Shown here piece after piece: positions 5,317 to 20,740 of a stretch of 24,327 nucleotides of DNA. The stretch is from a virus. The notes below the pieces were generated by a model that worked only from the letters and a program-made list of their open reading frames with translations, was not told where the DNA came from and ran no database searches. Within the stretch, counting starts at the first letter, position 1, and each line of letters starts with the position of its first letter. The translations under genes and the position numbers were made by a program. The stretch spans positions 1 to 24,327 of the IMG/VR virus record IMGVR_UViG_3300027973_002084; one strand, given 5' to 3'.

Positions 5317-6135
5317 CTAAAAGTCAACTCCTAGAGCTTTGGCCTGTTCTTCTGTAAGCTCAACAGCTTTTTTTCGTTTCGGCTGCGGGGGTTCGGGTTT
5401 AACTACGATTACATCCTCTGCTGCTGGAGCAGCAACAGGAGCAAACATACGAGCCATTCCTGTTCCCTCTAAAGCTTGCGGCCTTGCAGCGGCAAACTGA
5501 GCTTTAATTTCAGAATGATCTGAGCCAAGGGGCAGCTCTACCAAGTCCGAACCAGGGATGTGAGATTTCAAGCAATGCACTACAGATTCAGTTCCCGTCG
5601 AATCGAGCCACGCGATAACGTCCTCGACCAATTTTTCTTCAAGCTCATTTTGAGCCGGACGGTCTTTAAACTCCAAGGCATTAAAATTAATCTTGGCACC
5701 GTCTGCTCCCGTTACAGGATCCCGTTCGTTAAAAGAACGAGTCACAAACTTACTAGACGTGATAACTGAAGCGCAGTTAATCCTGTTGTTGTACAGGGTT
5801 TGAAAATAAGAGATAAAATTCTTTTGACTGGACTTACCTGAGATCATCGCGGTAGTTACACAGCGTGGCGGCAAAAGCCGGTGCTTCGGAGTTACACCGA
5901 TAAAAGCAATACGCATGAACTCTTCTTGGTTCCGCATTCCAAGATTTCCAAAATAAGGGGTAAACCCTAAAAGGATAAATTCAATTGGAATGCCGTTATC
6001 GTTTGCATCGATAATTGCAGAGTCAGAGTCTACATCAGATTTCCAACGGCGAGCTTGAAGATCAATTCGTAGTGTGTGGGGAGGAACGTTGGCGAGAATT
6101 TCGTCTTCGGAAAATTTACCGGCAATAAAAACCAT
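5317..6135 (-). CDS. Conserved-looking phage protein of unknown function (SSB neighbour)
   Basis: A 272 aa protein not assigned to a family. The first ~210 residues look like a compact alpha/beta domain ('IEFILLGFTPYFGNLG', 'FMRIAFIGVTPKHRLLPPR'), followed by an Ala/Pro/Lys-rich linker and a short acidic helix ending in LGVDF. A flexible linker with a terminal Asp-Phe resembles SSB-type or SSB-partner tails, which is only suggestive. It begins 15 bases after the SSB-like gene and both are probably co-transcribed, so a role in ssDNA metabolism is a reasonable guess. A weak CAGG lies 9 bases before the ATG. A rho-independent terminator follows. Confidence 0.8.
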   Translation of the reverse strand: MVFIAGKFSEDEILANVPPHTLRIDLQARRWKSDVDSDSAIIDANDNGIPIEFILLGFTPYFGNLGMRNQEEFMRIAFIGVTPKHRLLPPRCVTTAMISGKSSQKNFISYFQTLYNNRINCASVITSSKFVTRSFNERDPVTGADGAKINFNALEFKDRPAQNELEEKLVEDVIAWLDSTGTESVVHCLKSHIPGSDLVELPLGSDHSEIKAQFAAARPQALEGTGMARMFAPVAAPAAEDVIVVKPEPPQPKRKKAVELTEEQAKALGVDF

Positions 6136-6150
6136 GATTAAATACCTGAA

Positions 6151-6795
6151 TTAAAGGGAAAAATCGATTGAACCAATAGCCGCCGCAGCAATTTTACCTT
6201 TTTCAGGATCCACTGCTTTTTTAGGGGCGGACTTCGATGACTTGGGAAGATAAAGAATCTTATCCAAGGTGTAATTTAAGTAATTTTTATCATCTTTTTC
6301 GCTAGTAGAGACTTTACCGACCGCAATTGTCGGTGTGCCTGGTGCTAAATCTGATAGTTGTTTTGATAATTCAGCCCATGCTGTCAATTTAAACCAACAC
6401 GTTTCGGCGTTATCCGCTTGCCAAGCAAGGGAACGATTCGTGACGGTGGTGTCTGAGAGCTCAACCTCATCGGCTTTTGGACCCAGACCACCCGCAGCAA
6501 TAAACAAGTTGATTGCCAGCAGGTCATCGAAGTTATCTTTTGAGATAACTAGCATTGGTTGCATTTGAAGCACACCATCAACCGCGGCTCGTGTAGGACC
6601 AATAGCTAAAACAGAATCGTTTTTGCTTAATTGTTGTAGTAGTTTACCTACATAGTGATTTTTGTCCTGGATTAATTGGACCTTTGTTGAAACTCTTTTG
6701 TCGTTTGACGGGAGAGCATCAGCTAAGACGTTAATAACGCCTTCGTTATCCTGCGCGGTGTCTGTTATTTTCAGACCCAACAGAAAAATGTTCAT
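6151..6795 (-). CDS. Single-stranded DNA-binding protein, probable tandem OB folds
   Basis: A 214 aa protein probably coating ssDNA during phage replication. Residues ~95-185 read as an OB fold of the SSB type: 'NLFIAAGGLG', 'ETCWFKLTAWAELSKQL', 'GTPTIAVGKVSTSE', then 'YLNYTLDKILYLPKS'. The 'CWFKLTAWAELS' strand matches the SSB 'WF-V-WGKLA' block. Residues 1-90 show a second OB-like pattern. The C-terminus (GSIDFSL) is a weak version of the acidic-hydrophobic SSB tip, after a Lys/Pro/Ala-rich linker. The first 16 codons overlap the end of the upstream HNH-like gene by 50 bases. The neighbouring 272 aa protein may be a partner. Confidence 0.75.
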   Translation of the reverse strand: MNIFLLGLKITDTAQDNEGVINVLADALPSNDKRVSTKVQLIQDKNHYVGKLLQQLSKNDSVLAIGPTRAAVDGVLQMQPMLVISKDNFDDLLAINLFIAAGGLGPKADEVELSDTTVTNRSLAWQADNAETCWFKLTAWAELSKQLSDLAPGTPTIAVGKVSTSEKDDKNYLNYTLDKILYLPKSSKSAPKKAVDPEKGKIAAAAIGSIDFSL

Positions 6796-7333
6796 GCTTT
6801 AGTTTCCGATAAATGGTTGAGCGATGCACCTTTAGTGCCTTGGCTGCTTGACTTACGCCAGAACCTTGGCTTATGAATGCTAGTAGCATATTGGTATCTC
6901 CGCCAGTTAATTTCGAGTTTTTTCCGGTTCTGTAAGAAAAATGATATGGATTTATACACGACTTACAGTTGCAACTAGGCCGAGCTATAGCACCTTCACG
7001 AGGAATATCTAAATATTTCAAAATTAAATTTCTGACATAATAACGTTGTTTAAAAACATATAAGCAAGGAACATTATTGCTAAAGTTTTCACCCCAAGGC
7101 TCACATGTTTTGTAATCAAACAAGTTTAATGCTAATTTTTTAAATAGTGTAGAAAGTGGAGTTTCTTTACAGATCTTATAATGTAAGTTAAACGAACTTG
7201 CGTCTAAAGCACGACAAATATCCTCAGCTTGAGCCACCGCGTGGTTATTATTATTAGCTTCTATATAAAGGTCGATTGTTTTATTTTTTTTTAATATTTT
7301 AAGCTGGTATTTTTTTTCATTATTTGAGGACAT
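6746..7333 (-). CDS. HNH-like zinc finger / helix-turn-helix protein
   Basis: A 195 aa probable DNA-binding protein derived from an HNH homing-endonuclease-type family. The middle contains 'CNCKSCINPYHF', the C-x2-C-x-NP-x-H half of a zinc-HNH domain, but the usual preceding catalytic His block is not evident. The C-terminus has a helix-turn-helix ('GVSQAAKALKVHRSTIYRKL') like the one in the 117 aa zinc-ribbon protein. It may therefore regulate rather than cut DNA, though an active nicking enzyme cannot be excluded. It overlaps the virion-type gene upstream by 14 bases and the SSB-like gene downstream by 50 bases, which could reflect a moved-in gene. Confidence 0.75.
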   Translation of the reverse strand: MSSNNEKKYQLKILKKNKTIDLYIEANNNNHAVAQAEDICRALDASSFNLHYKICKETPLSTLFKKLALNLFDYKTCEPWGENFSNNVPCLYVFKQRYYVRNLILKYLDIPREGAIARPSCNCKSCINPYHFSYRTGKNSKLTGGDTNMLLAFISQGSGVSQAAKALKVHRSTIYRKLKHEHFSVGSENNRHRAG

Positions 7334-8306
7334 TGAGTTTACCTACGGCATCCATGTAATTTTGTATATTTTTTTGTGAAGGAGTGTAAAAAGCTATATT
7401 TTCTGGCATATAACCCAGATTTGCTAAAGTTTCAATTTCCTCTTTGTCTTTAGTTAGTAAATGTTTTCCGCTTTGCGGGTTATAAAAACGTTGAATAGGA
7501 ACGGCCCCTTCTGTCTCTTTGGTGTACGCCTCACCAACTACTCCTTCCAAAGAATAACCTCCTCTAATTGCAGATTCTTTTTCTTCTTCACTTATTGTGT
7601 ATAAATGGTTTCTACCTGTAGGACTATACAAACGGTATACGTCAGCTGCTTCCTTAACTAAATTAGAATCTGAAAACAAATCAAATCCGCTTTCCTCATT
7701 TTCTTTTGTAAAACCTGTTAAATCTTCTTTGCTTGGATCTGCCGTAAAGAAGTGACTTGCACTCGTCGGGTTATAGTAACGCTCCATTCTTATCAACTGA
7801 GGGAGCGAAGGAGTTTTCTCTTCTGGCAACACATCTGTTTCATCTGTTACTTCTGGTTTATAATTGCCGAAGGATGTTGGTTGACCGTTTGCATTATCTG
7901 AATCCTTTGTTTTATCCTGTGTGGCAGCTAAAGATGGTAAATTTGCGTCATTAGTGAAGCTAGGAATGTTTCCTGTGTTAGGGCTTATAGCCTTAAAAAT
8001 AGGAAGATCTGCATAATCTATATTTGGATTAACGCGAGCTGATGCAGGTGATGAAAAAGTTGGTGTTGTTGAAGTTGGTGTTGTTGAAGTTGGTGTCGTT
8101 GAAGTTGGTGTTGTTGAAGTTGGTGTCGTTGAAGTTGGTGTTGTTGAAGTTGGTGTTGTTGAAGTTGGTGTTGTTGAAGTTGGTGTTGTTGAAGTTGGTG
8201 TCGAAAAAGTTGTTTCTTCTTGTTGATTTTTATAGCCTAAAACACCACCTTTTCGGTTAGCAGGCTTACTTCCTTTTTGAAAAAATATATCTCCTGCAAA
8301 ACGCAT
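7320..8306 (-). CDS. Probable virion/adhesion protein: TPTST repeats plus DUF5648-like repeats
   Basis: A 328 aa protein in three parts. Residues 1-30 carry 'MRFAGDIFF...KGGVLGY', a motif shared with two neighbouring genes. Residues ~35-85 are nine tandem copies of a Thr/Pro/Ser pentapeptide, a likely extended stalk. After a disordered linker, residues ~175-320 hold three repeats around 'YYNPTSASHFFT', 'LYSPTGRNHLYT' and 'FYNPQSGKHLLT', with the R-x-YN-P-x-xG-x-H-x-x-T signature of DUF5648-type repeats, which occur in surface and cell-wall-binding proteins. The likely role is a tail-associated or decoration protein that binds host surface material. The family is recognised from memory; the virion role is inferred. 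Confidence 0.75.
   Translation of the reverse strand: MRFAGDIFFQKGSKPANRKGGVLGYKNQQEETTFSTPTSTTPTSTTPTSTTPTSTTPTSTTPTSTTPTSTTPTSTTPTSTTPTFSSPASARVNPNIDYADLPIFKAISPNTGNIPSFTNDANLPSLAATQDKTKDSDNANGQPTSFGNYKPEVTDETDVLPEEKTPSLPQLIRMERYYNPTSASHFFTADPSKEDLTGFTKENEESGFDLFSDSNLVKEAADVYRLYSPTGRNHLYTISEEEKESAIRGGYSLEGVVGEAYTKETEGAVPIQRFYNPQSGKHLLTKDKEEIETLANLGYMPENIAFYTPSQKNIQNYMDAVGKLNVLK
8059..8208. repeat. 15-bp tandem repeat, about 10 units, in-frame
   Basis: Nine near-identical units of GTTGGTGTTGTTGAA (plus-strand reading) run from 8059 to 8193, with a tenth degenerate unit to ~8208. Two units (at 8089 and 8119) carry a GTC-for-GTT change that is silent in the protein. On the coding strand each unit encodes one Thr-Pro-Thr-Ser-Thr. 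Copy number could vary by slippage. Confidence 0.95.
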
Positions 8307-9739: not shown

Positions 9740-10021
9740 TTACAAGCTAATTCTTCTGGTCATAAATCTGTGTAGTTTGTGTCCTTTACGAACTACTATA
9801 TCTAGAGTTTTTGCACGAAGAGAAGCTTCTTCGTAAGTATTAAACCATTCTGCGTCGTCTCGTTCGGAACAGTAACTAACGACCGTATTGTCTTGTAAAA
9901 ATGAACGTAAGTAGTCTCCATCTAGGTTTTGGATAACCCACGCCTCTCGAAGTGTTAACTCAGGTTTTGCAGCCATTTCAACCTGTGTTGAAAATAAAGA
10001 TTTCTCTGCAAGTTTAGTCAT
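9740..10021 (-). CDS. Hypothetical protein coupled to PolA
   Basis: A 93 aa protein of unknown function. The ATG at 10021 forms an ATGA overlap with the TGA of the polymerase gene, which favours this start over one four codons upstream and implies translational coupling. It contains 'WVIQNLDGDYLRSF' and 'DDAEWFNTYEEASLRA', reading as a short beta-rich module followed by a helix, like small domains that interpret residue-by-residue display data, with no catalytic motif. A polymerase accessory role is only a guess from coupling. Confidence 0.75.
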   Translation of the reverse strand: MTKLAEKSLFSTQVEMAAKPELTLREAWVIQNLDGDYLRSFLQDNTVVSYCSERDDAEWFNTYEEASLRAKTLDIVVRKGHKLHRFMTRRISL

Positions 10022-11913
10022 TTTGCGGCCCATGAACTTCCTACAGAAGCGTCAGCAGAAGAAGGAACTGATTTTAAAACTGTTTCAGCCGATTTAATCA
10101 TGGTTGTCTCAAGAATCTCTTTATAAGTCTCAGCTAATTCTTCTTTTACTTCAAGTACCAATTCATCGTGGACAGCAGCGACCAATCGAACATCTTCATT
10201 TAAATGTTTGTTTAAATCCGCGATTGCCAACTTTAAAATATCAGCCCCACTTCCTTGGATTAGTGTGTTGGCGCTGCACATCATTGTCGCATCATCGTAA
10301 CTTAATAGCCGTCGTCTTCCGCAAGCTGTTCGAATATAAGCCCAACCTTCTTGTACCAGAGATGCTCTTTCTTGGTGCCACGCCCGTAAACGAGGGTAAG
10401 CCAAATGAAATGCCGCGTGGGCAATCTTAGCTTCTGATAAACTAATCATCTTTCCGCTTTGAGCAGCATACGTTTTATATTTTCGGTAACCCATACCGTA
10501 CAAGAGAGCAAAGTTCAGAGTCTTACCTTCTTGCCTCTGCTCCTTTGTAACCGAAGAAATGTCAATTTTATATATCAGGCTGGCAGTTAAGGTGTGTAAG
10601 TCAATGTTTTTAACGAAAGCTTCTTTCATCTGAGCTATGTTTATGAGCTCCGCACCGAGGCGTAACTCGATTTGAGCCCAGTCACAAATAACCAACTTAT
10701 AACCTGGAGCGGCAATAAAGCATTCTCTAAAATCTTTTGACCTTGGAACTTGCTGAATGTTTACTGCATAAACTGTTTTTCCCTGTGTTTTAGTTGTTTT
10801 AGGGGATCCATTGCTGGTAAAACGTCCGGAGTTTGCACCAACTTGGTTGTAACCAGAGTGTATCCTGTGGGTTACAGGGTTTATATTACTAATTAATTTA
10901 TTTACATGCTCTAATCGAGTCTCAATTTTAGTTCGTTCTCGGTACAGAATCAAGGTTGAGTCTTCGCTATCAAACTCAGAAAGGGCGATTTGGTTAAGCG
11001 TGGTCTTGCCCGTCGTGGCATCTTTAGGCAACTCGATATTGCAAGAACTAAAGACATTGACAATCTGGGCTGTTGATCCGGGGTTGAATTCTTTCTTTGG
11101 TTTTTTTCCAACAGCAATAGAACCGTCACTAGACCTTGGAAGTTTGCAATCTTCTGGAAGTCTAGAGTCAAGTTCGTTAATAAACTGTTCGGTTTTTGCA
11201 ACCAGTTCATCCTCAATACGTTTACGCAACACCATTAATTTCGTTACATCAACCCCAAATCCTGTGTGACACATTAAAGCCACAGGGCGAACACACTGCG
11301 ACTCGACGCTATAAATAGGAGTTAAATTTTCTTCACGCAGCTCTTCCAGTTGATCTGCGGCAATGCGTGGCAGTACGTCAACGTCTTTTGCTGCATACTC
11401 TATTTGTTCTAACGTTAGTTCGGGTTGAGACCAATCTGTTCGACGCTGCTCTTTATCGAGTTCAATGTTAAGACGCCTTAGTGCGATGGCTTTTAAACTG
11501 CACGACAAATCCGCAAAGTAAGGTTTTTGAGCTTGAGGACTAATCTTTTTTTCTTTAAAACCTGAACGCAATACACGCTCAGCAATGTAAGTATCATAAA
11601 TCTTGTTTTTAAAATCAATTCCTAACTCATATAAGAACTGCAAGTCAAAATTTAAATTTTGACCAATTATCATTTCGCGGGACTCTATTAACTCCTTTAA
11701 CGCGCTGTCAGCTTGAACTTTAAATAAGTCAAAAACATAAACAATACGATCCTCATCAGTTGGATTGCTGTCACACAACTGGAGTAAACGCGGTTTAGCC
11801 AATCTTGCTTGTAGCCCTGTTGTTTCGAAGTCAAGGCAAATCTTTTTATGTTGGGTAAGAATTCCAATGGCTTCGGTGTACGTATCGGGTGTTGTTATGT
11901 AGTTGATGTGCAT
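10018..11913 (-). CDS. polA: Family A DNA polymerase with 3'-5' exonuclease
   Basis: A 631 aa replicative or repair polymerase without a 5' nuclease domain, typical of phage family A enzymes. The proofreading domain is complete: Exo I 'DFETTG' (Asp28, Glu30), Exo II 'NLNFDLQFL' and Exo III 'YAAKDVD'. The polymerase domain has motif A 'ICDWAQIELRLGAEL', motif B 'RQEGKTLNFALLYGMGY' and motif C 'AAVHDELVLEV'. In motif B the residue equivalent to E. coli Phe762 is Phe (KTLNF). It follows a hairpin/T-rich terminator-like element and is coupled to the downstream 93 aa gene. It works with the primase-helicase and SSB encoded nearby. Confidence 0.95.
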   Translation of the reverse strand: MHINYITTPDTYTEAIGILTQHKKICLDFETTGLQARLAKPRLLQLCDSNPTDEDRIVYVFDLFKVQADSALKELIESREMIIGQNLNFDLQFLYELGIDFKNKIYDTYIAERVLRSGFKEKKISPQAQKPYFADLSCSLKAIALRRLNIELDKEQRRTDWSQPELTLEQIEYAAKDVDVLPRIAADQLEELREENLTPIYSVESQCVRPVALMCHTGFGVDVTKLMVLRKRIEDELVAKTEQFINELDSRLPEDCKLPRSSDGSIAVGKKPKKEFNPGSTAQIVNVFSSCNIELPKDATTGKTTLNQIALSEFDSEDSTLILYRERTKIETRLEHVNKLISNINPVTHRIHSGYNQVGANSGRFTSNGSPKTTKTQGKTVYAVNIQQVPRSKDFRECFIAAPGYKLVICDWAQIELRLGAELINIAQMKEAFVKNIDLHTLTASLIYKIDISSVTKEQRQEGKTLNFALLYGMGYRKYKTYAAQSGKMISLSEAKIAHAAFHLAYPRLRAWHQERASLVQEGWAYIRTACGRRRLLSYDDATMMCSANTLIQGSGADILKLAIADLNKHLNEDVRLVAAVHDELVLEVKEELAETYKEILETTMIKSAETVLKSVPSSADASVGSSWAAK

Positions 11914-12233: not shown

Positions 12234-13013
12234 TCAAGCCTGACGAGATTTGTAGAAGTTTACAAGGTATGTTTCAATGTCTCCCCACATTTCTTTAACT
12301 TGATTTCCCTTGTCGGTTAGTTTAAATGTGTAGAACATCCGCTTCATCGCTTCAGCTTTGGAGCTAGCGTCCTCTCGTCGTGAACCACAGGAATATTGCT
12401 GACGAAGAGACAGCAGCCCATTACTGTCGCAATAGAGCAAGCCCGAACGAAGAGAGATGTATAAAGGGCAGACGTAGAAAGAATCACGACGAGGGGTTCC
12501 GGGAGAAAGTTCAGTTGGCTCAAATACTTTACTAGCGTTCTTTTTAAACCCGCGATACACCGCTGACGTGGATTTGATTCGGTATTCCGAAGAACACTTA
12601 TTTACAAACTCCACTGCTATATCGCGTATTGCGCGATAATCTGTTGTTGTACAAAGGTGGAGCAATAAAGCTGCGCCTGCACTACGGTAACTAACAGACT
12701 TATTTATTTCCTCTACAATGTCTAGAGGATCTTTTGATGTTTCGAGTTTTTTTGTGCTTGGTTTGTTTTTAACCAAAGCAGAATATTTAGGAGTTGCTTT
12801 TTCAGATGTAGCTAGCTTAAAAGCTAGGGATGCCAGCGCGGAACTCTTTTGCTCTACGCTTAGGCTAAACAGCTTGTCACTGTCCATTATTTTGACATCG
12901 ATCAGAGTTTCAAGGTCGATCTCAAAAGGTTGCTTTGCTTTAGCAGCTTTCATTAAAGCCGCTGCTTCTGGGTTTTCCAGGGTGCAACCCTGGTATTTGA
13001 ACTTGATGTCCAT
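12234..13013 (-). CDS. Hypothetical protein, first gene of polA-side operon
   Basis: A 259 aa protein not recognised. The N-terminal ~90 residues are Lys/Ala-rich and helical; the C-terminal half has conserved-looking blocks 'SFYVCPLYISLRSGLLYC' and 'FYTFKLTDKGNQVKEMWGDI', the latter reminiscent of winged-helix segments, without a firm match. A TTGACA-16-TACATT promoter lies 23 bases before the ATG, divergent from the plus-strand pair at 13137. It probably heads the transcript that includes the 81 aa gene. Confidence 0.8.
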   Translation of the reverse strand: MDIKFKYQGCTLENPEAAALMKAAKAKQPFEIDLETLIDVKIMDSDKLFSLSVEQKSSALASLAFKLATSEKATPKYSALVKNKPSTKKLETSKDPLDIVEEINKSVSYRSAGAALLLHLCTTTDYRAIRDIAVEFVNKCSSEYRIKSTSAVYRGFKKNASKVFEPTELSPGTPRRDSFYVCPLYISLRSGLLYCDSNGLLSLRQQYSCGSRREDASSKAEAMKRMFYTFKLTDKGNQVKEMWGDIETYLVNFYKSRQA

Positions 13014-14601: not shown

Positions 14602-14847
14602 TTAAAAAACACACACACTGTTTTTTCCTTCGTCCTCTTCCTCTGCCCACACCCAGTTTGAATTGTCAAACAGACTGTCGAGGTCTGAGCGCCCTTCAGC
14701 GTACTGCCACTTGTCTAACAACGAGTCAGCAAAACGGCCTATCATCAACTCTAGTGGAGGATCTGGATGGTCTATGCGAGCTGAAGCTTGAGTGTCGCGC
14801 CAAAGCTCTAGGATTTGATCTTCAGAAGGTCGTGGCATGGTGATCAC
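14602..14847 (-). CDS. Small hypothetical protein coupled to the VWA gene
   Basis: An 81 aa protein (78 aa if it starts at the ATG at 14838). The GTG at 14847 overlaps the TGA of the VWA gene as GTGA. It contains 'SEDQILELWRDTQASARIDH' and a tryptophan-rich acidic end ('NSNWVWAEEEDEG'). No known family. Tight coupling makes it a possible accessory of the RavA/ViaA-like operon. Confidence 0.65.
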   Translation of the reverse strand: MITMPRPSEDQILELWRDTQASARIDHPDPPLELMIGRFADSLLDKWQYAEGRSDLDSLFDNSNWVWAEEEDEGKNSVCVF

Positions 14848-16394
14848 CTAATACATTTTTGGATAACGTCAATGGTTTCTGCGTGAGCAGAAATGTCGAC
14901 CGCATAAGCTTCATCTGAAAACTCATGCACTATATCTGGAACATGTGTTCCGATACAGATTGTACTCCACATGGCTCCTGTCCTTTGTTTAAGGGACCGA
15001 AGCGCTCTCATATTAGAGTCTCGAACGTCTGAATAACCATCCGTAATCAAAAGAATGTCTGAACGATCCTGGGTCTTTGTTAGTTCGACCGCGTGGGAGA
15101 TTACGGAGTTAAAACTTGTACCTCCGCCAAGATGCCAAGTGCCTACAAAATCAAGTAATTCTTTGTTTGTTTTTCTATTTCCCTTCAAGGTTACACCCTG
15201 TTCAATTCGTGTATCAAATAAATAGATCTGAACTTCTCTATTTTCCTTTAAGGCTTCCTCAGAAATTACAAACGAAATAGCTTTTGACCAGACTTCTGGT
15301 TCTCCACCCATAGAACCTGAGGTATCTACGTACATAATTATTGGACCTTTACCTATATCTTTTCGGTGAGCGTTGTAATCTTTTGTAAGCAAAGTTTTCT
15401 GTGAGTACTTCAAAGCAAATAAAAGTTTTCCCTCGTTACTTCCAGCTAATGCCAGTTCTACAGGAAAGGCTCTTGTAATGTCATTTGAAAAAACCGCTCC
15501 GTTAATTGCTTCGTAAGTTGACTTTGTTATCTTCGCTCGTTTTCGTTCCTGCCATACTTTGCGGAGAGCACCTAACTTCTTTGCCAGTGCTTTTAGCTTG
15601 GGGTTTCTTTGTAACTTTTCCGCTAAGTCTCTCTTAGTTTGCAAGTCTGTACCGTGGGTCCCCTTACCCTCTTCGTTTCCAAACAAAGTCGAAATTGAAC
15701 TGTTTGTTTCGTCGCAATCTTTATTGGTTTTATCTACAATCCTGCTGGTCTGCGATCCTATTTGATCTTTAAGTTCTTCTATGGCGTTTTGAATTGCTTG
15801 ATTAATTTCTTTACCCTCAGCACGAGCTTTATCCATTGCAGCTTTATCACCTTTATCCTGAGCATCTTGAAATTGTTTTCTTAACTCATCTAATTTGTCT
15901 CCCGCGTTGAATACAAGTTGAACATCCAATAAATCTTTCTCAATTAACTCTTCTATGACTTCAGACAGTTGGTTTAAAATATTGATTGCGTTGTTACCTG
16001 CGTTAAATTGATTGCCTACACTTCTAGCTAGTAGATGAGGCCAAGCAGCGGCAAGACTAATATCAGACATAATCGCATACCACATTCCATTCTCAGGCTT
16101 ATATCCTTCTGGAAATTTAACGTCATCTCCATTTTGTTTTGCTCTGAAATAATCTTCGTAAGCTTGCTCTGTAATGGTCCAGTTTACGTCGTCTGCGTTA
16201 TACAACCGTTCGAAAAGCTCTTTACCAAAGCGGGATAGTTTTTTAATGTTGTAGTGATCAATGAGATAAGTTACAGAAGGTTTCCCGTCTACAACAAAGT
16301 CTTCCCAAAGAAAATCTGCAAGTGCTGAGCAAGCTAGCGTTAGAGGTTCGTTGTGAGTCAGCCTCACGAATTCAGTGTGTTTGTTTAGTTTCAT
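14844..16394 (-). CDS. ViaA-like von Willebrand factor A domain protein
   Basis: A 516 aa protein with a C-terminal VWA domain and an N-terminal helical region, the ViaA/CoxE-like layout. The MIDAS is complete: DTSGSMGG (357-364), Thr426 in 'GGGTSF' and Asp452 in 'ITDGYSD'. Upstream, 'LQRNPKLKALAKKLGALRKV' and 'DITRAFPVELALA...LLFALKYSQKTLLTKDY' match the pre-VWA segment of ViaA. Residues ~160-225 form a charged coiled coil. In E. coli ViaA partners the MoxR ATPase RavA; here a RavA-like ATPase lies just upstream, separated by one 52 aa gene whose TGA overlaps this ATG. The VWA probably binds a partner or substrate that the ATPase remodels. Confidence 0.9.
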   Translation of the reverse strand: MKLNKHTEFVRLTHNEPLTLACSALADFLWEDFVVDGKPSVTYLIDHYNIKKLSRFGKELFERLYNADDVNWTITEQAYEDYFRAKQNGDDVKFPEGYKPENGMWYAIMSDISLAAAWPHLLARSVGNQFNAGNNAINILNQLSEVIEELIEKDLLDVQLVFNAGDKLDELRKQFQDAQDKGDKAAMDKARAEGKEINQAIQNAIEELKDQIGSQTSRIVDKTNKDCDETNSSISTLFGNEEGKGTHGTDLQTKRDLAEKLQRNPKLKALAKKLGALRKVWQERKRAKITKSTYEAINGAVFSNDITRAFPVELALAGSNEGKLLFALKYSQKTLLTKDYNAHRKDIGKGPIIMYVDTSGSMGGEPEVWSKAISFVISEEALKENREVQIYLFDTRIEQGVTLKGNRKTNKELLDFVGTWHLGGGTSFNSVISHAVELTKTQDRSDILLITDGYSDVRDSNMRALRSLKQRTGAMWSTICIGTHVPDIVHEFSDEAYAVDISAHAETIDVIQKCIR

Positions 16395-16549
16395 GTTTGT
16401 TTTTTGGATCTGATGATGGCTTGATCTAAATCGACTAATAGAGCTACAAGTTTGTCGTAAGCACTTGAAGGGCTGATTACCTCCGCAGACTCTATAAAGT
16501 CTGCCAGTCTTTTTCGAACAAGATTTAAGTCTTCAGTTTTGACAGTCAT
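16391..16549 (-). CDS. Small helical protein between MoxR and VWA genes (52 aa)
   Basis: A 52 aa protein, 'MTVKTEDLNLVRKRLADFIE' then 'SPSSAYDKLVALLVDLDQAI', predicted all-helical. It couples by ATGA to the VWA gene and follows the MoxR gene by 25 bases. The upstream CATCACATCA is shared with the MoxR leader. No known family; position suggests a subunit or adaptor of the ATPase-VWA complex. Confidence 0.65.
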   Translation of the reverse strand: MTVKTEDLNLVRKRLADFIESAEVISPSSAYDKLVALLVDLDQAIIRSKKQT

Positions 16550-16574
16550 GTTGATGTGATGCTACGCGCTTAGA

Positions 16575-17768
16575 CTACTTGCTTATGTCGCTAATTGCAA
16601 CGGTAAGCGTTTCGCAATAATTTTCGAGCTGTTTCTGTAATTTTACGCCCGTCTGTCTTGTGCTCAAATTCATACGATATTTATTTCCGTCAATAACTTC
16701 TCCTACTTTGTCTCTGACTGTCTGCATATCTTTATGGTACTTACGTAATTGAATAACAAAATCATTTAACTCAGCGATTCCACTACTACGTAGTTGAGCT
16801 TTATGAGTCGTAGTTGAGTACTCCGTCATTATCCCAGAAGCAGCTCGTTTAGCATCGGCAAATATTTTGTTAGCCGTGGGAATCACCTGATCAAGGATCT
16901 CTTTAATAGTTTCCTTATCATCGGGTGTTCTATATACAATATGAACCAAAGAGTCGTGCATATGCTCTGGTACAAGTTCTTCATCTCCCTGAACAATTGC
17001 CCAAGCTCTTAAGAACTTAAGTACCTGCACACGACGCCGATCGCTAATTGTAATACCACGGGCACTTAACATATCCCATACTTCGCCATATTTATCTACG
17101 AAATCATCTGAGACTTTAATTTGTTTAGCGGCGTCCTGTAACTGTGTAAGGGTATCAAGACTTAAGTGTGTGCCTACGGTAGGTCGTTCCTCGACTCCAA
17201 GAGCCCAACCATCCAAGATCCGTTTCGATGTGCTTTTCTTAAGAAATTCCACCGTGGGTCGGAACAGAAATCTGTCTGCAAATGCTTGGAGGGATTCTTC
17301 ATCCGGCCAGGAATTTGTTGCTGCAACAATAGATTGAATCGGAGTGTGGATAACTTCTTTTCCATTGTTGAAAGTGCGCTCGTTTAAAAGAGTCAACAGT
17401 GAGTTCAGAATAGCGGATGATCCTCTAAATAACTCATCCGTAAATGCGATGTGAGCGTCTGGAAGATACCCTTTAACGTCGCGTGTGTACTCGTCATTAA
17501 GAAGCTTGGTAACGGCCACGGGGCCGAAGATCTCGGAAGGATCGGTGGTTGGAGTTAAAAGATAACCAAAGTAGTTGGCCCCAAAAATCCCGTTACATAT
17601 GTTCCGTACCAGATCAGACTTACCTGTACCTGGTTCTCCTAACAAGAAAGCGTTTTGCTTGCTTATTAGGGTTGCTAACAGACCATCAACCACAGACTCA
17701 CGTTCGAGCGTGGCAGCGTTTAGGTTTGCGCGAAAGGTTTGGAGAGAAGCGAATAAAGTGTCGTTCAT
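16575..17768 (-). CDS. RavA-like MoxR-family AAA+ ATPase
   Basis: A 397 aa ATPase of the MoxR/RavA family. Walker A GEPGTGKS (44-51), 'TDPSEIFGPV' (75-84), Walker B 'IAFTDELFRG' (Asp111-Glu112), and 'ILNSLLTLLNERTFNNG' plus sensor 'VAATNSWPDEESLQAFADRF' follow the MoxR order. The C-terminal ~130 residues are helical with a coiled-coil-like end. I chose the ATG at 17768; an upstream TTG would add 11 residues. MoxR ATPases act with VWA proteins as chaperone-like pairs, and the ViaA-like gene follows. CobS of cyanomyophages is a related AAA+ type, but the motifs here read closer to RavA. Confidence 0.92.
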   Translation of the reverse strand: MNDTLFASLQTFRANLNAATLERESVVDGLLATLISKQNAFLLGEPGTGKSDLVRNICNGIFGANYFGYLLTPTTDPSEIFGPVAVTKLLNDEYTRDVKGYLPDAHIAFTDELFRGSSAILNSLLTLLNERTFNNGKEVIHTPIQSIVAATNSWPDEESLQAFADRFLFRPTVEFLKKSTSKRILDGWALGVEERPTVGTHLSLDTLTQLQDAAKQIKVSDDFVDKYGEVWDMLSARGITISDRRRVQVLKFLRAWAIVQGDEELVPEHMHDSLVHIVYRTPDDKETIKEILDQVIPTANKIFADAKRAASGIMTEYSTTTHKAQLRSSGIAELNDFVIQLRKYHKDMQTVRDKVGEVIDGNKYRMNLSTRQTGVKLQKQLENYCETLTVAISDISK

Positions 17769-17805
17769 GAGCGTGATGTGATGTTGTAGGGATTGTAGCA
17801 AACTG

Positions 17806-17834
17806 TGAGCTTGCCCCGCAGCTGCAAAGCAACG
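17806..17834 (-). promoter_or_regulatory. GC-rich leader element (copy C)
   Basis: Minus-strand GCAGCTGCGGGGCAAGCTCAC lies 38 bases before the MoxR start and resembles elements at 20656 and 23112. TTGC/GCAA arms can pair around it. Confidence 0.35.
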
Positions 17835-17843
17835 AGGGTGTAA

Positions 17844-18506
17844 TTAAATGTAACTTCGTAAAACCTCGTCGAATTCTTGAGGCTTATCTTTATTGTTCTC
17901 ATACGTTAACCCATTGAATATTTGCTCATATGTTTTGTTCCATAATGTTTCGTACGTGGTAACCAAACTTTGTCTCTGTTCTCTAAAGTTTTCGTACAAA
18001 AGCGTTGTTTGTCTTATGAATTCAGTTTGCTTGGCTTGATCAAAAAGTACGTAATCATCTATATTATCAATCACCACCCATTCAAGATTAGTTGTCATAA
18101 AACGAACCCACTCTCCTTTGTAGTTTTTTCCAATCTTAAATCGTTCCTGAGTTGCGTTACTAAGCCAGGGAAACTTATCTTCGGGTGAGTATGTATAGTT
18201 CAATTCTTTGTGAGGCAGAGTTAAAGGTATTCGTTTAACATAATCGTTATACTTTATGTTTTTATCCTCATATTGTTTTATAATTTTTGCTTTAACTTGC
18301 TCAACTAATTTGTGTATGTCCGAATGAATTGCCCGTTCTATAGTTAGATGTTTATCGTTTTTTAATCGAGTACTAAAGCCTTCAACTATAAAAACACCTG
18401 GTTTATCTAATTGTCTGCGATACTTAACTTCTAATAAAACCGGTTCTTTTGTAGGACAATCTTCAAGTAAGATTGTTTGAAACTTAACTGTTGTTAATCT
18501 AGGCAT
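17844..18506 (-). CDS. Hypothetical protein in RavA/ViaA-like operon
   Basis: A 220 aa protein, unrecognised. It starts 'MPRLTTVKFQTILLEDCP', with beta-rich first ~60 residues, a Lys-rich middle, 'KFPWLSNATQERFKIGKNYK' and a helical C-terminus with many Gln/Asn. The ATG at 18506 overlaps the preceding gene by 8 bases. It precedes the MoxR gene by 75 bases, which hold leader element C. Co-transcription suggests it belongs to the ATPase system; no motif tells how. Confidence 0.75.
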   Translation of the reverse strand: MPRLTTVKFQTILLEDCPTKEPVLLEVKYRRQLDKPGVFIVEGFSTRLKNDKHLTIERAIHSDIHKLVEQVKAKIIKQYEDKNIKYNDYVKRIPLTLPHKELNYTYSPEDKFPWLSNATQERFKIGKNYKGEWVRFMTTNLEWVVIDNIDDYVLFDQAKQTEFIRQTTLLYENFREQRQSLVTTYETLWNKTYEQIFNGLTYENNKDKPQEFDEVLRSYI

Positions 18507-18714
18507 AAAACTGCACCGCCGTTGTTCGTGGGAAAGGAAGTTGTACAGATACAATTCGGCAAGTATGTTTTAATCGGTCTTTGAATCCGTTTAATCGGTT
18601 TGAAGCTACTTCAAAAGAGACAAAGGTAACAGCTTTTTCTGGATCGTTAGTGTATTTTTCAATGTCAGAGAGAAAGCCTTCCTTTGAATGGAAGGCATAA
18701 ACAGTTTGTGTCAT
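18499..18714 (-). CDS. Small hypothetical protein in RavA/ViaA-like operon
   Basis: A 71 aa protein, 'MTQTVYAFHSKEGFLSDIEK' then 'AVTFVSFEVASNRLNGF' and 'TCRIVSVQLPFP', reading as a small alpha/beta fold. Its ATG overlaps the last base of the 397 aa gene stop (TAATG), and its end overlaps the 220 aa gene. No known family. Confidence 0.7.
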   Translation of the reverse strand: MTQTVYAFHSKEGFLSDIEKYTNDPEKAVTFVSFEVASNRLNGFKDRLKHTCRIVSVQLPFPRTTAVQFYA

Positions 18715-19907
18715 TAGAAATCGGGTGTTGGTTGAGATGTTAATGGTGTTTTTATATCAGAAATCAAATCGTCTAGGTCGTCACCAGCAACACTAATTAG
18801 TTCGCGGCGCTGACCAATCATCTTATTGAGGTGCTTAGATCGTTGTGCGTAAATGTCCAACTCAATGTTTGCTTCTTTAACCAATAGGTCTAAAGCATTT
18901 GAGTTTTCTGCAGTTTTAATTTGTTCGCATAGAGTTGTATAAGTGTTAGACAAAGCTAAGGATTTTTGAAGTGTCTCTAGTCCTTTAGATGTATCACGGG
19001 TGTCAACGATCGACTCCAATTCAGTACGAATTTCTTGTTGTAGTTCTTGGAATCTTTTACATCCTTCTTCGCGAACTTGTCGCATTGGTGATTGAATTGC
19101 GTTGCCTGCACCTAGCAGTTGATCTGCTAAGCCAGCTAAGTTATCAAACCCAACTACGGAATCGCTAATTAGCTTTAGCTTCTCGGCTGTTACTTGCCAA
19201 GACCCACGCTTCTTATCTCCACCTGTTTGTTGTCGTCCGACTTTAGTTACAGTCCTAACATCTAAATCGTCAAGTAACTCAGCACCTAAACAAAGTGCTT
19301 TGTCCGCAGCATTAGCGTGGGCTGCTTCGATTACTTCTTTAGTATTTATTGAATTTTCATATGTAAGTAAACCTTGTACGTCACCATCAACTGGTTTCGT
19401 AGCAACTTCTAAAGAAACTGGAAGAGGACCAACAACATGAACCCCAATTGGATTGCGATACTCCTGCAGTGTCGGGAACACTCGCATATAGGCATCGCTA
19501 GCCAGTTTGTATTCCATTTCATCCTTAAAAAGAGGAAGCAAGAAACCCTCTACTGTGTTCCTCCATTTACCATGCTCTGACTCCCAGAAACCAAACAAAC
19601 GTTCGTTAGCTTCTTTAGCTTTCGCACGAATTTGTTTAATTAGTTTGTTTGCTTCATCGAAATAATTTGCTGTTACAAAATGAGTGTCGCCAAAGTGTAT
19701 GCAGTAACCGTCGTACAACTCTCGTTGCATAACTCGAAGAGCATCTAACTCAGATTTAAGTGCGTTAGAAAGATTAGGTCGTAGAGAAACAGTGTTGTTC
19801 TTCTCTAACGTGTCTACAACTGATTGCGGAAGTTTGAGATCGTCAAATTTAATTTGAATGCTTTGACGAACACTGGCGGAAATTGTACAAGAAAGCAAGT
19901 AGTTCAT
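18714..19907 (-). CDS. Helical protein, possibly DUF3150-like, heading RavA/ViaA-like operon
   Basis: A 397 aa mostly helical protein. The N-terminus 'MNYLLSCTISASVRQSIQIK', then 'ALRVMQRELYDGYCIHFGDTHFVT' and 'FGFWESEHGKWRN', have the general layout of DUF3150 proteins that sit beside CobS/CobT-like AAA+ and VWA genes on plasmids and phages. This resemblance is from memory and weak. The C-terminal third has coiled-coil stretches ('EEGCKRFQELQQEIRTELES'). It starts 28 bases after a terminator and is coupled to the 71 aa gene by TAATG. It may be the third component of the ATPase-VWA complex. Confidence 0.75.
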   Translation of the reverse strand: MNYLLSCTISASVRQSIQIKFDDLKLPQSVVDTLEKNNTVSLRPNLSNALKSELDALRVMQRELYDGYCIHFGDTHFVTANYFDEANKLIKQIRAKAKEANERLFGFWESEHGKWRNTVEGFLLPLFKDEMEYKLASDAYMRVFPTLQEYRNPIGVHVVGPLPVSLEVATKPVDGDVQGLLTYENSINTKEVIEAAHANAADKALCLGAELLDDLDVRTVTKVGRQQTGGDKKRGSWQVTAEKLKLISDSVVGFDNLAGLADQLLGAGNAIQSPMRQVREEGCKRFQELQQEIRTELESIVDTRDTSKGLETLQKSLALSNTYTTLCEQIKTAENSNALDLLVKEANIELDIYAQRSKHLNKMIGQRRELISVAGDDLDDLISDIKTPLTSQPTPDF

Positions 19908-19935: not shown

Positions 19936-19969
19936 TAAAGAAAAATGGGTCGTTGCTGTAGACGACCCA
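19936..19969 (-). terminator. Rho-independent terminator before the ATPase operon
   Basis: On the minus strand TGGGTCGT (19969-19962) pairs with ACGACCCA (19953-19946) around an 8-base loop, followed by TTTTTCTTTA. It comes 27 bases after the 53 aa gene and ends the unit starting near 20617; partial readthrough may feed the 397 aa gene, because no promoter is visible in between. Confidence 0.8.
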
Positions 19970-19996: not shown

Positions 19997-20158
19997 CTAT
20001 GGAAGGCATCCATTTGTATGGATTTCAGGATTTCTGCAGACTTGAACTTGGTAGCCTGGTCTTTTGGCTAAGACCAGAGGATCGTAGCCTAACGCTGCGC
20101 AAGTTATAATCCCAAACATGAGGCTAAGAAGTGTGAAGGTAGCGAAACGGTAGATCAT
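19997..20158 (-). CDS. Small exported or membrane-anchored protein (53 aa)
   Basis: A 53 aa protein starting 'MIYRFATFTLLSLMFGIITC', a positively charged then hydrophobic signal-like segment, followed by 'AALGYDPLVLAKRPG' and Cys41 and Cys51. Its ATG overlaps the TGA of the 141 aa gene (ATGA). It could be periplasmic with a disulfide, or a membrane peptide. Cys20 after 'IIT' is not a good lipobox. A terminator follows. No known family. Confidence 0.65.
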   Translation of the reverse strand: MIYRFATFTLLSLMFGIITCAALGYDPLVLAKRPGYQVQVCRNPEIHTNGCLP

Positions 20159-20580
20159 TTTAAGCGAGTAAATGCGAGGTTGATTTTATCGGTAATCATA
20201 TCTACGTCACCAGTTACAGCAAGCTGCTCGATCAACTTCTTCCGTTCGATCTTTGCCACTTTAAGTTTCTGTTCTAATTGCTCGATCTTATCGTCGATCC
20301 GTTCGAGTTTTGAGTGAGCCGTGGGCTTACGTGTTACCCGAACAACAATGTTGGTTTCAAGGTCTGGGAACTTAAAAGCAGATTCAGCGCCACTGAATAC
20401 AGACAAATCAAATTTGCGTGACTCAGCAACGGTAACGTTGTTAGTCAAGGTCTCTTTGGCTGCGTTAAAAGGCAGACCAAAAGCCTCATTGCAAGACAGG
20501 GTTGCTATATCAAACTCGTTCCACGAATGTGCAGCGAGCTCAGCGTCTTTAATCAGGGTCGTGAAGTTGGGGGTGTTCAT
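20155..20580 (-). CDS. Hypothetical protein with C-terminal coiled coil
   Basis: A 141 aa protein. Residues 1-90 are a mixed domain ('FTTLIKDAELAAHSWNEF', 'KFPDLETNIVVRVTRKP'); residues ~93-125 form a clear coiled coil ('LERIDDKIEQLEQKLKVAKI'). The ATG at 20580 follows a TTGCTT-17-TACATT promoter and a GGGAG/CTCCC leader hairpin. It is coupled by ATGA to the 53 aa exported protein. Function unknown. Confidence 0.75.
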   Translation of the reverse strand: MNTPNFTTLIKDAELAAHSWNEFDIATLSCNEAFGLPFNAAKETLTNNVTVAESRKFDLSVFSGAESAFKFPDLETNIVVRVTRKPTAHSKLERIDDKIEQLEQKLKVAKIERKKLIEQLAVTGDVDMITDKINLAFTRLK

Positions 20581-20655: not shown

Positions 20656-20677
20656 GTGCGTTGCCCCGTAGTGAGGC
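20656..20677 (-). promoter_or_regulatory. GC-rich leader element (copy A)
   Basis: Minus-strand GCCTCACTACGGGGCAACGC, closely matching copy B at 23112-23132. The GGCAAC within it can pair with GTTGCC in the adjacent tRNA-like element. Confidence 0.4.
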
Positions 20678-20680
20678 AAA

Positions 20681-20740
20681 GGCAACCGCAGGAATCGAAC
20701 CTGCGTCTTAGTGTTTAACCACTAAGAAACCTATGTTGTC
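20681..20740 (-). ncRNA. tRNA-like element lacking one arm (about 60 nt)
   Basis: The minus strand contains a good tRNA T-arm (GCAGG-TTCGATT-CCTGC, with the universal TTC) followed by a 7-base acceptor strand GGTTGCC, which pairs imperfectly (5 of 7) with GACAACA ~50 bases earlier. Between them is only one hairpin, CTTAGTG-GTTAAA-CACTAAG, that can be read either as an anticodon-like arm with a 6-base loop or as a D-arm (GTTT...GTGG...AAAC). There is no room for both arms. It may be a decayed phage tRNA, an armless tRNA or a tRNA mimic. No normal anticodon can be assigned. Confidence 0.4.

What the first reader, a model, noticed from the sequence alone, without database searches (positions are those of the whole stretch)
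14602..19907. RavA/ViaA-like MoxR-VWA operon with four unknown partners in a phage
A MoxR AAA+ ATPase with intact Walker A/B and a ViaA-like VWA protein with complete MIDAS are joined by overlapping 397, 71, 220, 52 and 81 aa genes. RavA-ViaA pairs in bacteria act as chaperone-like complexes linked to respiratory enzymes and membrane state, and MoxR-VWA modules also appear in conflict systems. A complete set inside a phage is unusual and could remodel a host complex, assemble the virion or counter defence. The 397 aa protein may be the DUF3150-like third component seen beside CobS/CobT genes on plasmids, but that link is weak.
Basis: partly seen in the sequence, partly recalled or inferred. 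Interest (0 to 1): 0.85.

Follow-up and report, generated by a model that had tools for sequence, protein, structure and literature searches.

The report
Phage RavA-ViaA-like motor with third protein
A large, uncultured group of freshwater phages related to cyanophage S-EIV1 carries a conserved three-gene machine, an ATP-driven RavA-like motor, its ViaA-like partner and a third protein folded like the plasmid family DUF3150, next to the phage DNA polymerase gene, which points to a role in remodelling DNA-replication or recombination complexes rather than the host respiratory role known from E. coli.

Summary
The genes are real, but the unit is smaller than described. The conserved core is three genes: p397, a RavA-type MoxR ATPase and a ViaA-type VWA protein. 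They keep this order in 76 of 80 p397-bearing IMG/VR contigs; the other four end too early to test. The 71, 220, 52 and 81 aa genes occur in 21, 7, 4 and 3 of 34 representative loci, so they are accessories. Motor and VWA fall on the RavA/ViaA side of trees, away from plasmid CobS/NorD-type proteins, but the LARA domain is missing and scores are far below equivalog cut-offs. The third protein has no sequence family. Its predicted fold matches DUF3150 (top viral hit, E 1.1e-4), with a weak colinear profile match. DUF3150 is the unstudied third gene beside MoxR and VWA genes on conjugative plasmids, often with bet/recT and exonuclease. Both p397 (35/35, ...DF) and DUF3150 (13/14) end in an aromatic residue after a variable linker. 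The triad lies in the replication block by polA and is absent from S-EIV1, which shares structural genes. Most likely function: ATP-driven remodelling of replication or recombination complexes (inferred, about 0.45). New variant of a known kind; phage MoxR-VWA pairs were already reported.

The parts
18714..19907 (-). p397: third core component, 397 aa; predicted fold like DUF3150; strictly conserved C-terminal Asp-Phe after a variable linker
16575..17768 (-). RavA-type MoxR AAA+ ATPase, 397 aa from the conserved ATG (mechanical ORF begins at TTG 17801); lacks a LARA domain
14844..16394 (-). ViaA-type VWA protein, 516 aa, complete MIDAS
18499..18714 (-). 71 aa protein, common but not universal accessory (21 of 34 representative loci)
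17844..18506 (-). 220 aa protein, fast-evolving accessory (7 of 34 loci; omega 0.36)
16391..16549 (-). 52 aa protein, accessory of the closest clade (4 of 34 loci)
14602..14847 (-). 81 aa protein, accessory of the closest clade (3 of 34 loci)
20155..20577 (-). 140 aa protein with C-terminal coiled-coil-like stretch, conserved neighbour upstream of p397 (32 of 34 loci; the other two have under 800 bp upstream)
12234..13013 (-). 259 aa protein of unknown family, conserved neighbour between VWA and polA
10018..11913 (-). family A DNA polymerase; 37 of 41 related polA loci with room have the VWA gene upstream
5317..6135 (-). 272 aa conserved replication-block protein whose C-terminus (..G[VIL][DE]F) resembles that of p397; present in all 14 triad-bearing records tested
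6151..6795 (-). 214 aa protein with weak SSB-family similarity (PF00436, E 0.009, below cut-off), ends ..SIDFSL
19946..19969 (-). terminator-like hairpin with T-run 39 nt before the p397 start codon, separating it from the upstream gene

Best explanation
The core is a three-protein AAA+ remodelling machine. A hexameric RavA-type MoxR motor (hexamer inferred from the family) works with a ViaA-type VWA co-chaperone whose MIDAS site binds an acidic ligand (inferred from the family). A DUF3150-like adaptor, p397, is helical with a small beta-sheet and carries an aromatic C-terminal docking tail. Shown: the genes, their motifs, the fixed order, the link to polA, the affinity to RavA/ViaA, and the strictly conserved C-terminal DF. 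Supported but not proven: homology of p397 to DUF3150. Inferred: the machine acts on phage DNA-replication or recombination complexes (polymerase, SSB-like proteins, exonuclease or recombinase), using ATP to load, unload or disassemble them. The tail of p397 would dock either on the motor/VWA or on a replisome partner.
For: Fixed order p397-MoxR-VWA in 76 of 80 loci, no counterexample with room. Invariant catalytic and MIDAS residues. Flanked by polA, with primase, exonuclease and an SSB-like gene in the same block; 27 of 31 polA loci with 8 kb upstream have the whole triad. In an 87 kb relative the triad is in the replication block at 26-30 kb on the - strand, while S-EIV1-like terminase and portal-like genes are at 60-66 kb on the + strand; S-EIV1 shares those structural genes (50% and 42%) but has a divergent polA (23-24%) and no triad. 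Fold match of p397 to DUF3150; colinear profile match E 0.014, 0 of 100 shuffles as good. DUF3150 sits between or beside MoxR and VWA on plasmids, in several cases with ssb, bet/recT and lambda-type exonuclease. C-terminal aromatic residue in p397 35/35, DUF3150 13/14, the 272 aa protein 80/80 at 73% identity or more.
Against: No direct evidence for any substrate. The DUF3150 link is not reached by Pfam, and the reversed DUF3150 profile scores almost as well (23.5 versus 26.5); TM-scores are 0.38-0.48 and the p397 model has pLDDT 75, pTM 0.58. Plasmid DUF3150 partners are a different MoxR/VWA subfamily. The DF-like tail of the 272 aa protein is lost in two distant relatives, so the shared-tail idea is weak in the phage. 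Location in a replication block may reflect expression timing only. The nearest isolate-type relatives of the motor pair (Moorella phage, CL131) do not have p397 next to it.
Confidence: 0.45

Rival explanations
1. Virion-assembly chaperone: the MoxR-VWA pair helps assemble tail or head proteins, as proposed for the archaeal virus ATV and group 2.2 jumbo phages.
For: Published precedents: ATV p618/p892 (PMC4124505) and the jumbo-phage MoxR-vWA pair (PMC7824862). One weak hit of p397 to a phage scaffold family (PF06810, E 0.03, below cut-off).
Against: The triad lies in the replication block on the opposite strand to the structural block; S-EIV1 shares terminase and portal-like genes but lacks the triad, so this virion type does not need it.
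Confidence: 0.17
2. Host-complex remodeller: as RavA-ViaA acts on fumarate reductase, Nuo and membrane lipids, the phage version reshapes a host respiratory or photosynthetic membrane complex.
For: Motor and VWA fall with RavA/ViaA; the likely host is a cyanobacterium (PurM of a relative is 82% identical to S-EIV1 PurM).
Against: No LARA domain, which in E. coli RavA mediates LdcI and lipid binding (PMC9489729); E. coli RavA-ViaA has no third protein of this type; no membrane feature was identified.
Confidence: 0.12
3. Conflict or counter-defence module akin to the MoxR-vWA ternary systems of Kaur et al. 2020.
For: PF20030 is named after MoxR-vWA-beta-propeller ternary systems; ternary MoxR-vWA-X logic is described there (PMC7159879).
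Against: No convincing PADLOC match for any of the seven proteins; no effector domain, peptidase or EAD found by Pfam; linked to polA rather than to a variable defence island; low omega. PF20030 is also found in 12 of 14 control genomes, E. coli among them.
Confidence: 0.12
4. Metal- or cofactor-insertion chaperone (CobS/CobT- or NorQ/NorD-like) for a phage metalloenzyme.
For: MoxR-VWA pairs often serve metalloenzymes, and DUF3150 neighbours are annotated as CobS or NorD.
Against: The motor and VWA are not on the CobS/NorD side; no metalloenzyme gene found beside the triad.
Confidence: 0.07

Closest known systems
E. coli RavA-ViaA
   Same: MoxR motor of the same side of the tree, VWA protein with ViaA-like region and MIDAS, adjacent genes in the order motor-VWA
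   Different: Phage motor lacks LARA, motor 40% identical over only 159 aa and VWA about 28%; far under NCBIfam equivalog cut-offs; third gene p397; sits in a phage replication block
MoxR-DUF3150-VWA triad of conjugative plasmids (IncC, pCAR1, IncHI-type) with SXT/R391 counterparts
   Same: Three components, third with similar predicted fold and aromatic C-terminal end, association with ssDNA/recombination genes
   Different: Plasmid MoxR/VWA are of CobS/NorD type; gene order MoxR-DUF3150-VWA instead of p397-MoxR-VWA; p397 not matched by the Pfam model
MoxR-vWA pair of group 2.2 jumbo phages, phage 0305phi8-36 and cyanophage CL131
   Same: Phage-borne MoxR-VWA pair
   Different: No p397 relative found beside the CL131 pair; jumbo-phage VWA carries a metallopeptidase domain; different phage lineages
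ATV p618/p892 (archaeal virus)
   Same: Viral MoxR plus VWA protein that interact
   Different: Very remote sequence (26% over 323 aa), virion components, role in extracellular tail growth
Moorella phage MTATph1 ATPase and VWA
   Same: Nearest annotated phage relatives (35% and 28%), adjacent genes
   Different: Upstream neighbours unrelated to p397

Membership tests
RavA | RavA-type AAA+ core (NCBIfam NF010054, tree) | tested here: met
   5.1e-37 over residues 14-268; with RavA against plasmid/CobS types, support 100/99
RavA | Equivalog score cut-off (681 bits) | tested here: not met
   128 bits
RavA | LARA domain and RavA C-terminal domain | tested here: not met
   No Pfam match beyond bpMoxR, AAA_5 and AAA_lid_8 in the C-terminal part; protein is about 100 aa shorter than RavA
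ViaA | ViaA-like region plus VWA with complete MIDAS | tested here: met
   6.6e-22 over 204-492; MIDAS invariant; ViaA side of tree 100/100
ViaA | Equivalog score cut-off (500 bits) and matching N-terminal domain | tested here: not met
   78 bits; residues 1-203 not matched
DUF3150 (PF11348) | Pfam gathering score | tested here: not met
   Not among the families listed for the 35 members; no match in the window record and relatives
DUF3150 (PF11348) | Fold shared with annotated members | tested here: met
   Foldseek BFVD top hit is annotated DUF3150, E 1.1e-4, prob 1.00, over 330 columns; TM 0.38/0.48 and rmsd 8.7, so only the overall arrangement is shared
DUF3150 (PF11348) | Profile-profile similarity | tested here: inconclusive
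   E 0.014, colinear; 0/100 shuffles reach it but the reversed profile comes close
CobS/CbbQ/NorQ (CGN) MoxR | Grouping with CobS-type ATPases | tested here: not met
   Separated from phrog_249 representative and plasmid AAA
MoxR-vWA ternary conflict systems (Kaur et al. 2020) | VMAP, iSTAND, FtsH-pair or beta-propeller third component with effector domains | tested here: not met
   No such domain in any protein of the operon by Pfam, NCBIfam or PADLOC
ATV/jumbo-phage virion-assembly MoxR-vWA | Presence in virion or requirement for assembly | not testable with these tools
   Gene position and the S-EIV1 comparison argue against it

The most novel reading that the evidence does not exclude
MoxR-VWA motors of two different subfamilies (RavA/ViaA in S-EIV1-like cyanophages, CobS/NorD-type in conjugative plasmids) share a DUF3150-type adaptor and recognise aromatic C-terminal peptide tails on ssDNA-binding and recombination proteins. 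They would form a general class of AAA+ remodellers of mobile-element replication or recombination complexes.
Probability: 0.25. Interest if true: 0.8.

Novelty: new variant of a known kind. Interest (0 to 1): 0.55.

Why it matters
RavA-ViaA and related MoxR-VWA machines are common, but few substrates are known. A compact triad that travels with a DNA-polymerase block in an abundant phage group gives a defined set of candidate substrates. It also ties in DUF3150, a third component found on more than a thousand plasmid records (including multidrug-resistance IncC plasmids) for which the paper library here holds no study. If both use aromatic C-terminal tails, one binding assay would test the function in two unrelated classes of mobile element.

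Tried and rejected
p397 against Pfam, NCBIfam, PHROGs and PADLOC: nothing convincing. p397 against upstream neighbours of the Moorella and CL131 motor pairs: no relation. p397 against solved structures: only generic helical bundles, best Z 8.9. p397 in bacterial genomes: none found in the GTDB scan. First five-sequence DUF3150 profile: E 0.19. AlphaFold model of the 272 aa protein: pLDDT 46, not used. Campylobacter phage A11a as a phage homologue: rejected, its MoxR is identical to E. coli RavA, so the unverified record is contaminated; the Salmonella and 'Escherichia phage ECO95' hits look likewise like bacterial RavA/ViaA. DUF3150 scan of viral contigs: alignment too divergent for the tool. 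Promoter scan: no excess over shuffles. Rfam: no match.
Full report
What is there. The window is a 24,327 bp IMG/VR phage record. Its genes at 14602-19907 are all on the minus strand. In transcription order they are p397 (397 aa), p71, p236 (220 aa from its ATG), MoxR (397 aa from the conserved ATG at 17768), p52, VWA (516 aa) and p81. MoxR matches PF20030 (1.3e-57) and VWA matches VWA_2 (1.6e-10). Walker A, Walker B, sensor and arginine residues are invariant in 30 relatives, and the MIDAS DxSxS, T and D are invariant in 33. Synonymous changes dominate: omega 0.02 for MoxR, 0.05 for VWA and 0.10 for p397, as for the polymerase.

What belongs together. Of the 80 p397 loci, 76 hold p397, MoxR and VWA in this order; the other four end too soon to tell. 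In many distant members p397-MoxR gaps shrink to as little as 3 nt and MoxR and VWA overlap by a few bases, as expected of a tight operon. The small genes are not part of the core: p71 in 21, p236 in 7, p52 in 4 and p81 in 3 of 34 representatives. By contrast a 140 aa gene upstream and a 259 aa gene downstream are kept wherever there is room. Seeding from the polymerase instead, 27 of 31 loci with 8 kb upstream hold the whole triad, and 37 of 41 with 4.5 kb hold the VWA gene; several of the rest are cut by the flank.

Which phage. An 87 kb relative (G009) carries genes like those of cyanophage S-EIV1: terminase 50%, portal-like protein 42%, glycosyltransferase 41%, PurM 82%. The window is therefore most likely from an S-EIV1-related cyanophage lineage; no near relative is among 50,697 phage records. 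In G009 the triad is at 26-30 kb on the minus strand with primase, exonuclease and polA, while the structural genes lie at 60-66 kb on the plus strand. S-EIV1 has a divergent polA (23-24%) and no triad. So the triad goes with the replication block, not with the virion type.

Which families. NCBIfam gives RavA 5.1e-37 and ViaA 6.6e-22, both far under the equivalog cut-offs. In trees the window MoxR groups with RavA and phage/bacterial relatives against plasmid AAA proteins and a phrog_249 (CobS-type) protein, support 100/99. VWA groups likewise with ViaA, 100/100. Some branches are long, so the exact position inside the RavA side is open. No LARA domain is present; in E. coli it mediates LdcI and lipid binding (PMC9489729).

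The third protein. p397 matches no sequence family. Its AlphaFold model (pLDDT 75, pTM 0.58) has as best viral match a protein annotated DUF3150 (Foldseek E 1.1e-4, probability 1.00), with six further matches at probability 1.00. A profile of 14 DUF3150 proteins aligns colinearly with p397 residues 25-167 at E 0.014; no block-shuffled profile of 100 reached the score, but the reversed profile came near. I take remote homology as probable (about 0.75) but not proven, and do not file p397 as a DUF3150 member.

What DUF3150 does elsewhere. A tblastn search finds it on 1,447 plasmid records. In fetched examples DUF3150 lies beside MoxR and VWA genes, and on IncC, pVAS114, pT159A and a Citrobacter plasmid also by bet or recT and lambda-type exonuclease. 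The pCAR1 paper notes these ORFs are conserved in R478, Rts1, SXT and R391 (PMC2642839). No paper in the library names DUF3150.

The tails. p397 ends in Asp-Phe in 35 of 35 representatives after an unconserved linker. DUF3150 proteins end in Phe, Trp or Tyr in 13 of 14; on IncC and pVAS114 the Bet, exonuclease and a 293-302 aa neighbour also end in aromatic residues, but on other plasmids they mostly do not. In the phage, the 272 aa protein at 5317-6135 ends G[VIL][DE]F in 79 of 80 close relatives, though two distant relatives lost it. SSB-type C-terminal phenylalanine tails are the familiar precedent (own knowledge); S-EIV1's annotated SSB ends DEPF.

How it most likely works. A MoxR ring, with its VWA partner and the p397 adaptor, uses ATP to remodel phage replication or recombination complexes. 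Shown: gene set, order, motifs, linkage, family side. Inferred: complex formation, substrate and direction of action. Rivals are virion assembly, host membrane complexes, conflict and metal insertion.

Novelty. MoxR-VWA pairs in phages are known: 0305phi8-36 (PMC2147016), group 2.2 jumbo phages (PMC7824862) and the archaeal virus ATV (PMC4124505). New here is a RavA/ViaA-type pair fixed to a DUF3150-like third protein and to a replication block across a large uncultured phage lineage.

Noticed in passing
MG065691.1 / MG065686.1 (L023): The MoxR gene in the unverified Campylobacter phage A11a record is identical to E. coli K-12 RavA in the tree alignment, so these phage records contain bacterial DNA.
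   Followed up: yes
window 20660-20730, - strand: A tRNA-like relic (T-arm GCAGGTTCGATTCCTGC and a D-arm-like stem) with no ARAGORN hit lies between the 58 aa and 156 aa ORFs.
   Followed up: partly
window 19946-19969, - strand: Strong hairpin plus T-run 39 nt before the p397 start codon; terminator or attenuator of the triad operon.
   Followed up: no
window 7320-8306, - strand: 328 aa protein with many TSTTPTSTTPT-like repeats and a DUF5648 domain (4.5e-30).
   Followed up: no
window 5317-6135, - strand: Very conserved 272 aa protein (73% or more across 80 relatives, 417 candidate loci) without any known family.
   Followed up: partly
L215 6136-9792 and L305 3294-6316: On IncC and pVAS114 plasmids Bet, exonuclease and a neighbouring protein all end in aromatic residues like the adjacent DUF3150 protein.
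   Followed up: partly
window 22-2772, - strand: Primase-helicase with D5_N and DUF5906 domains together with a family A polymerase.
   Followed up: no
L187 12615-12684: ARAGORN calls a tRNA-Cys with anticodon aca in the 87 kb relative, an unusual anticodon for Cys.
   Followed up: no
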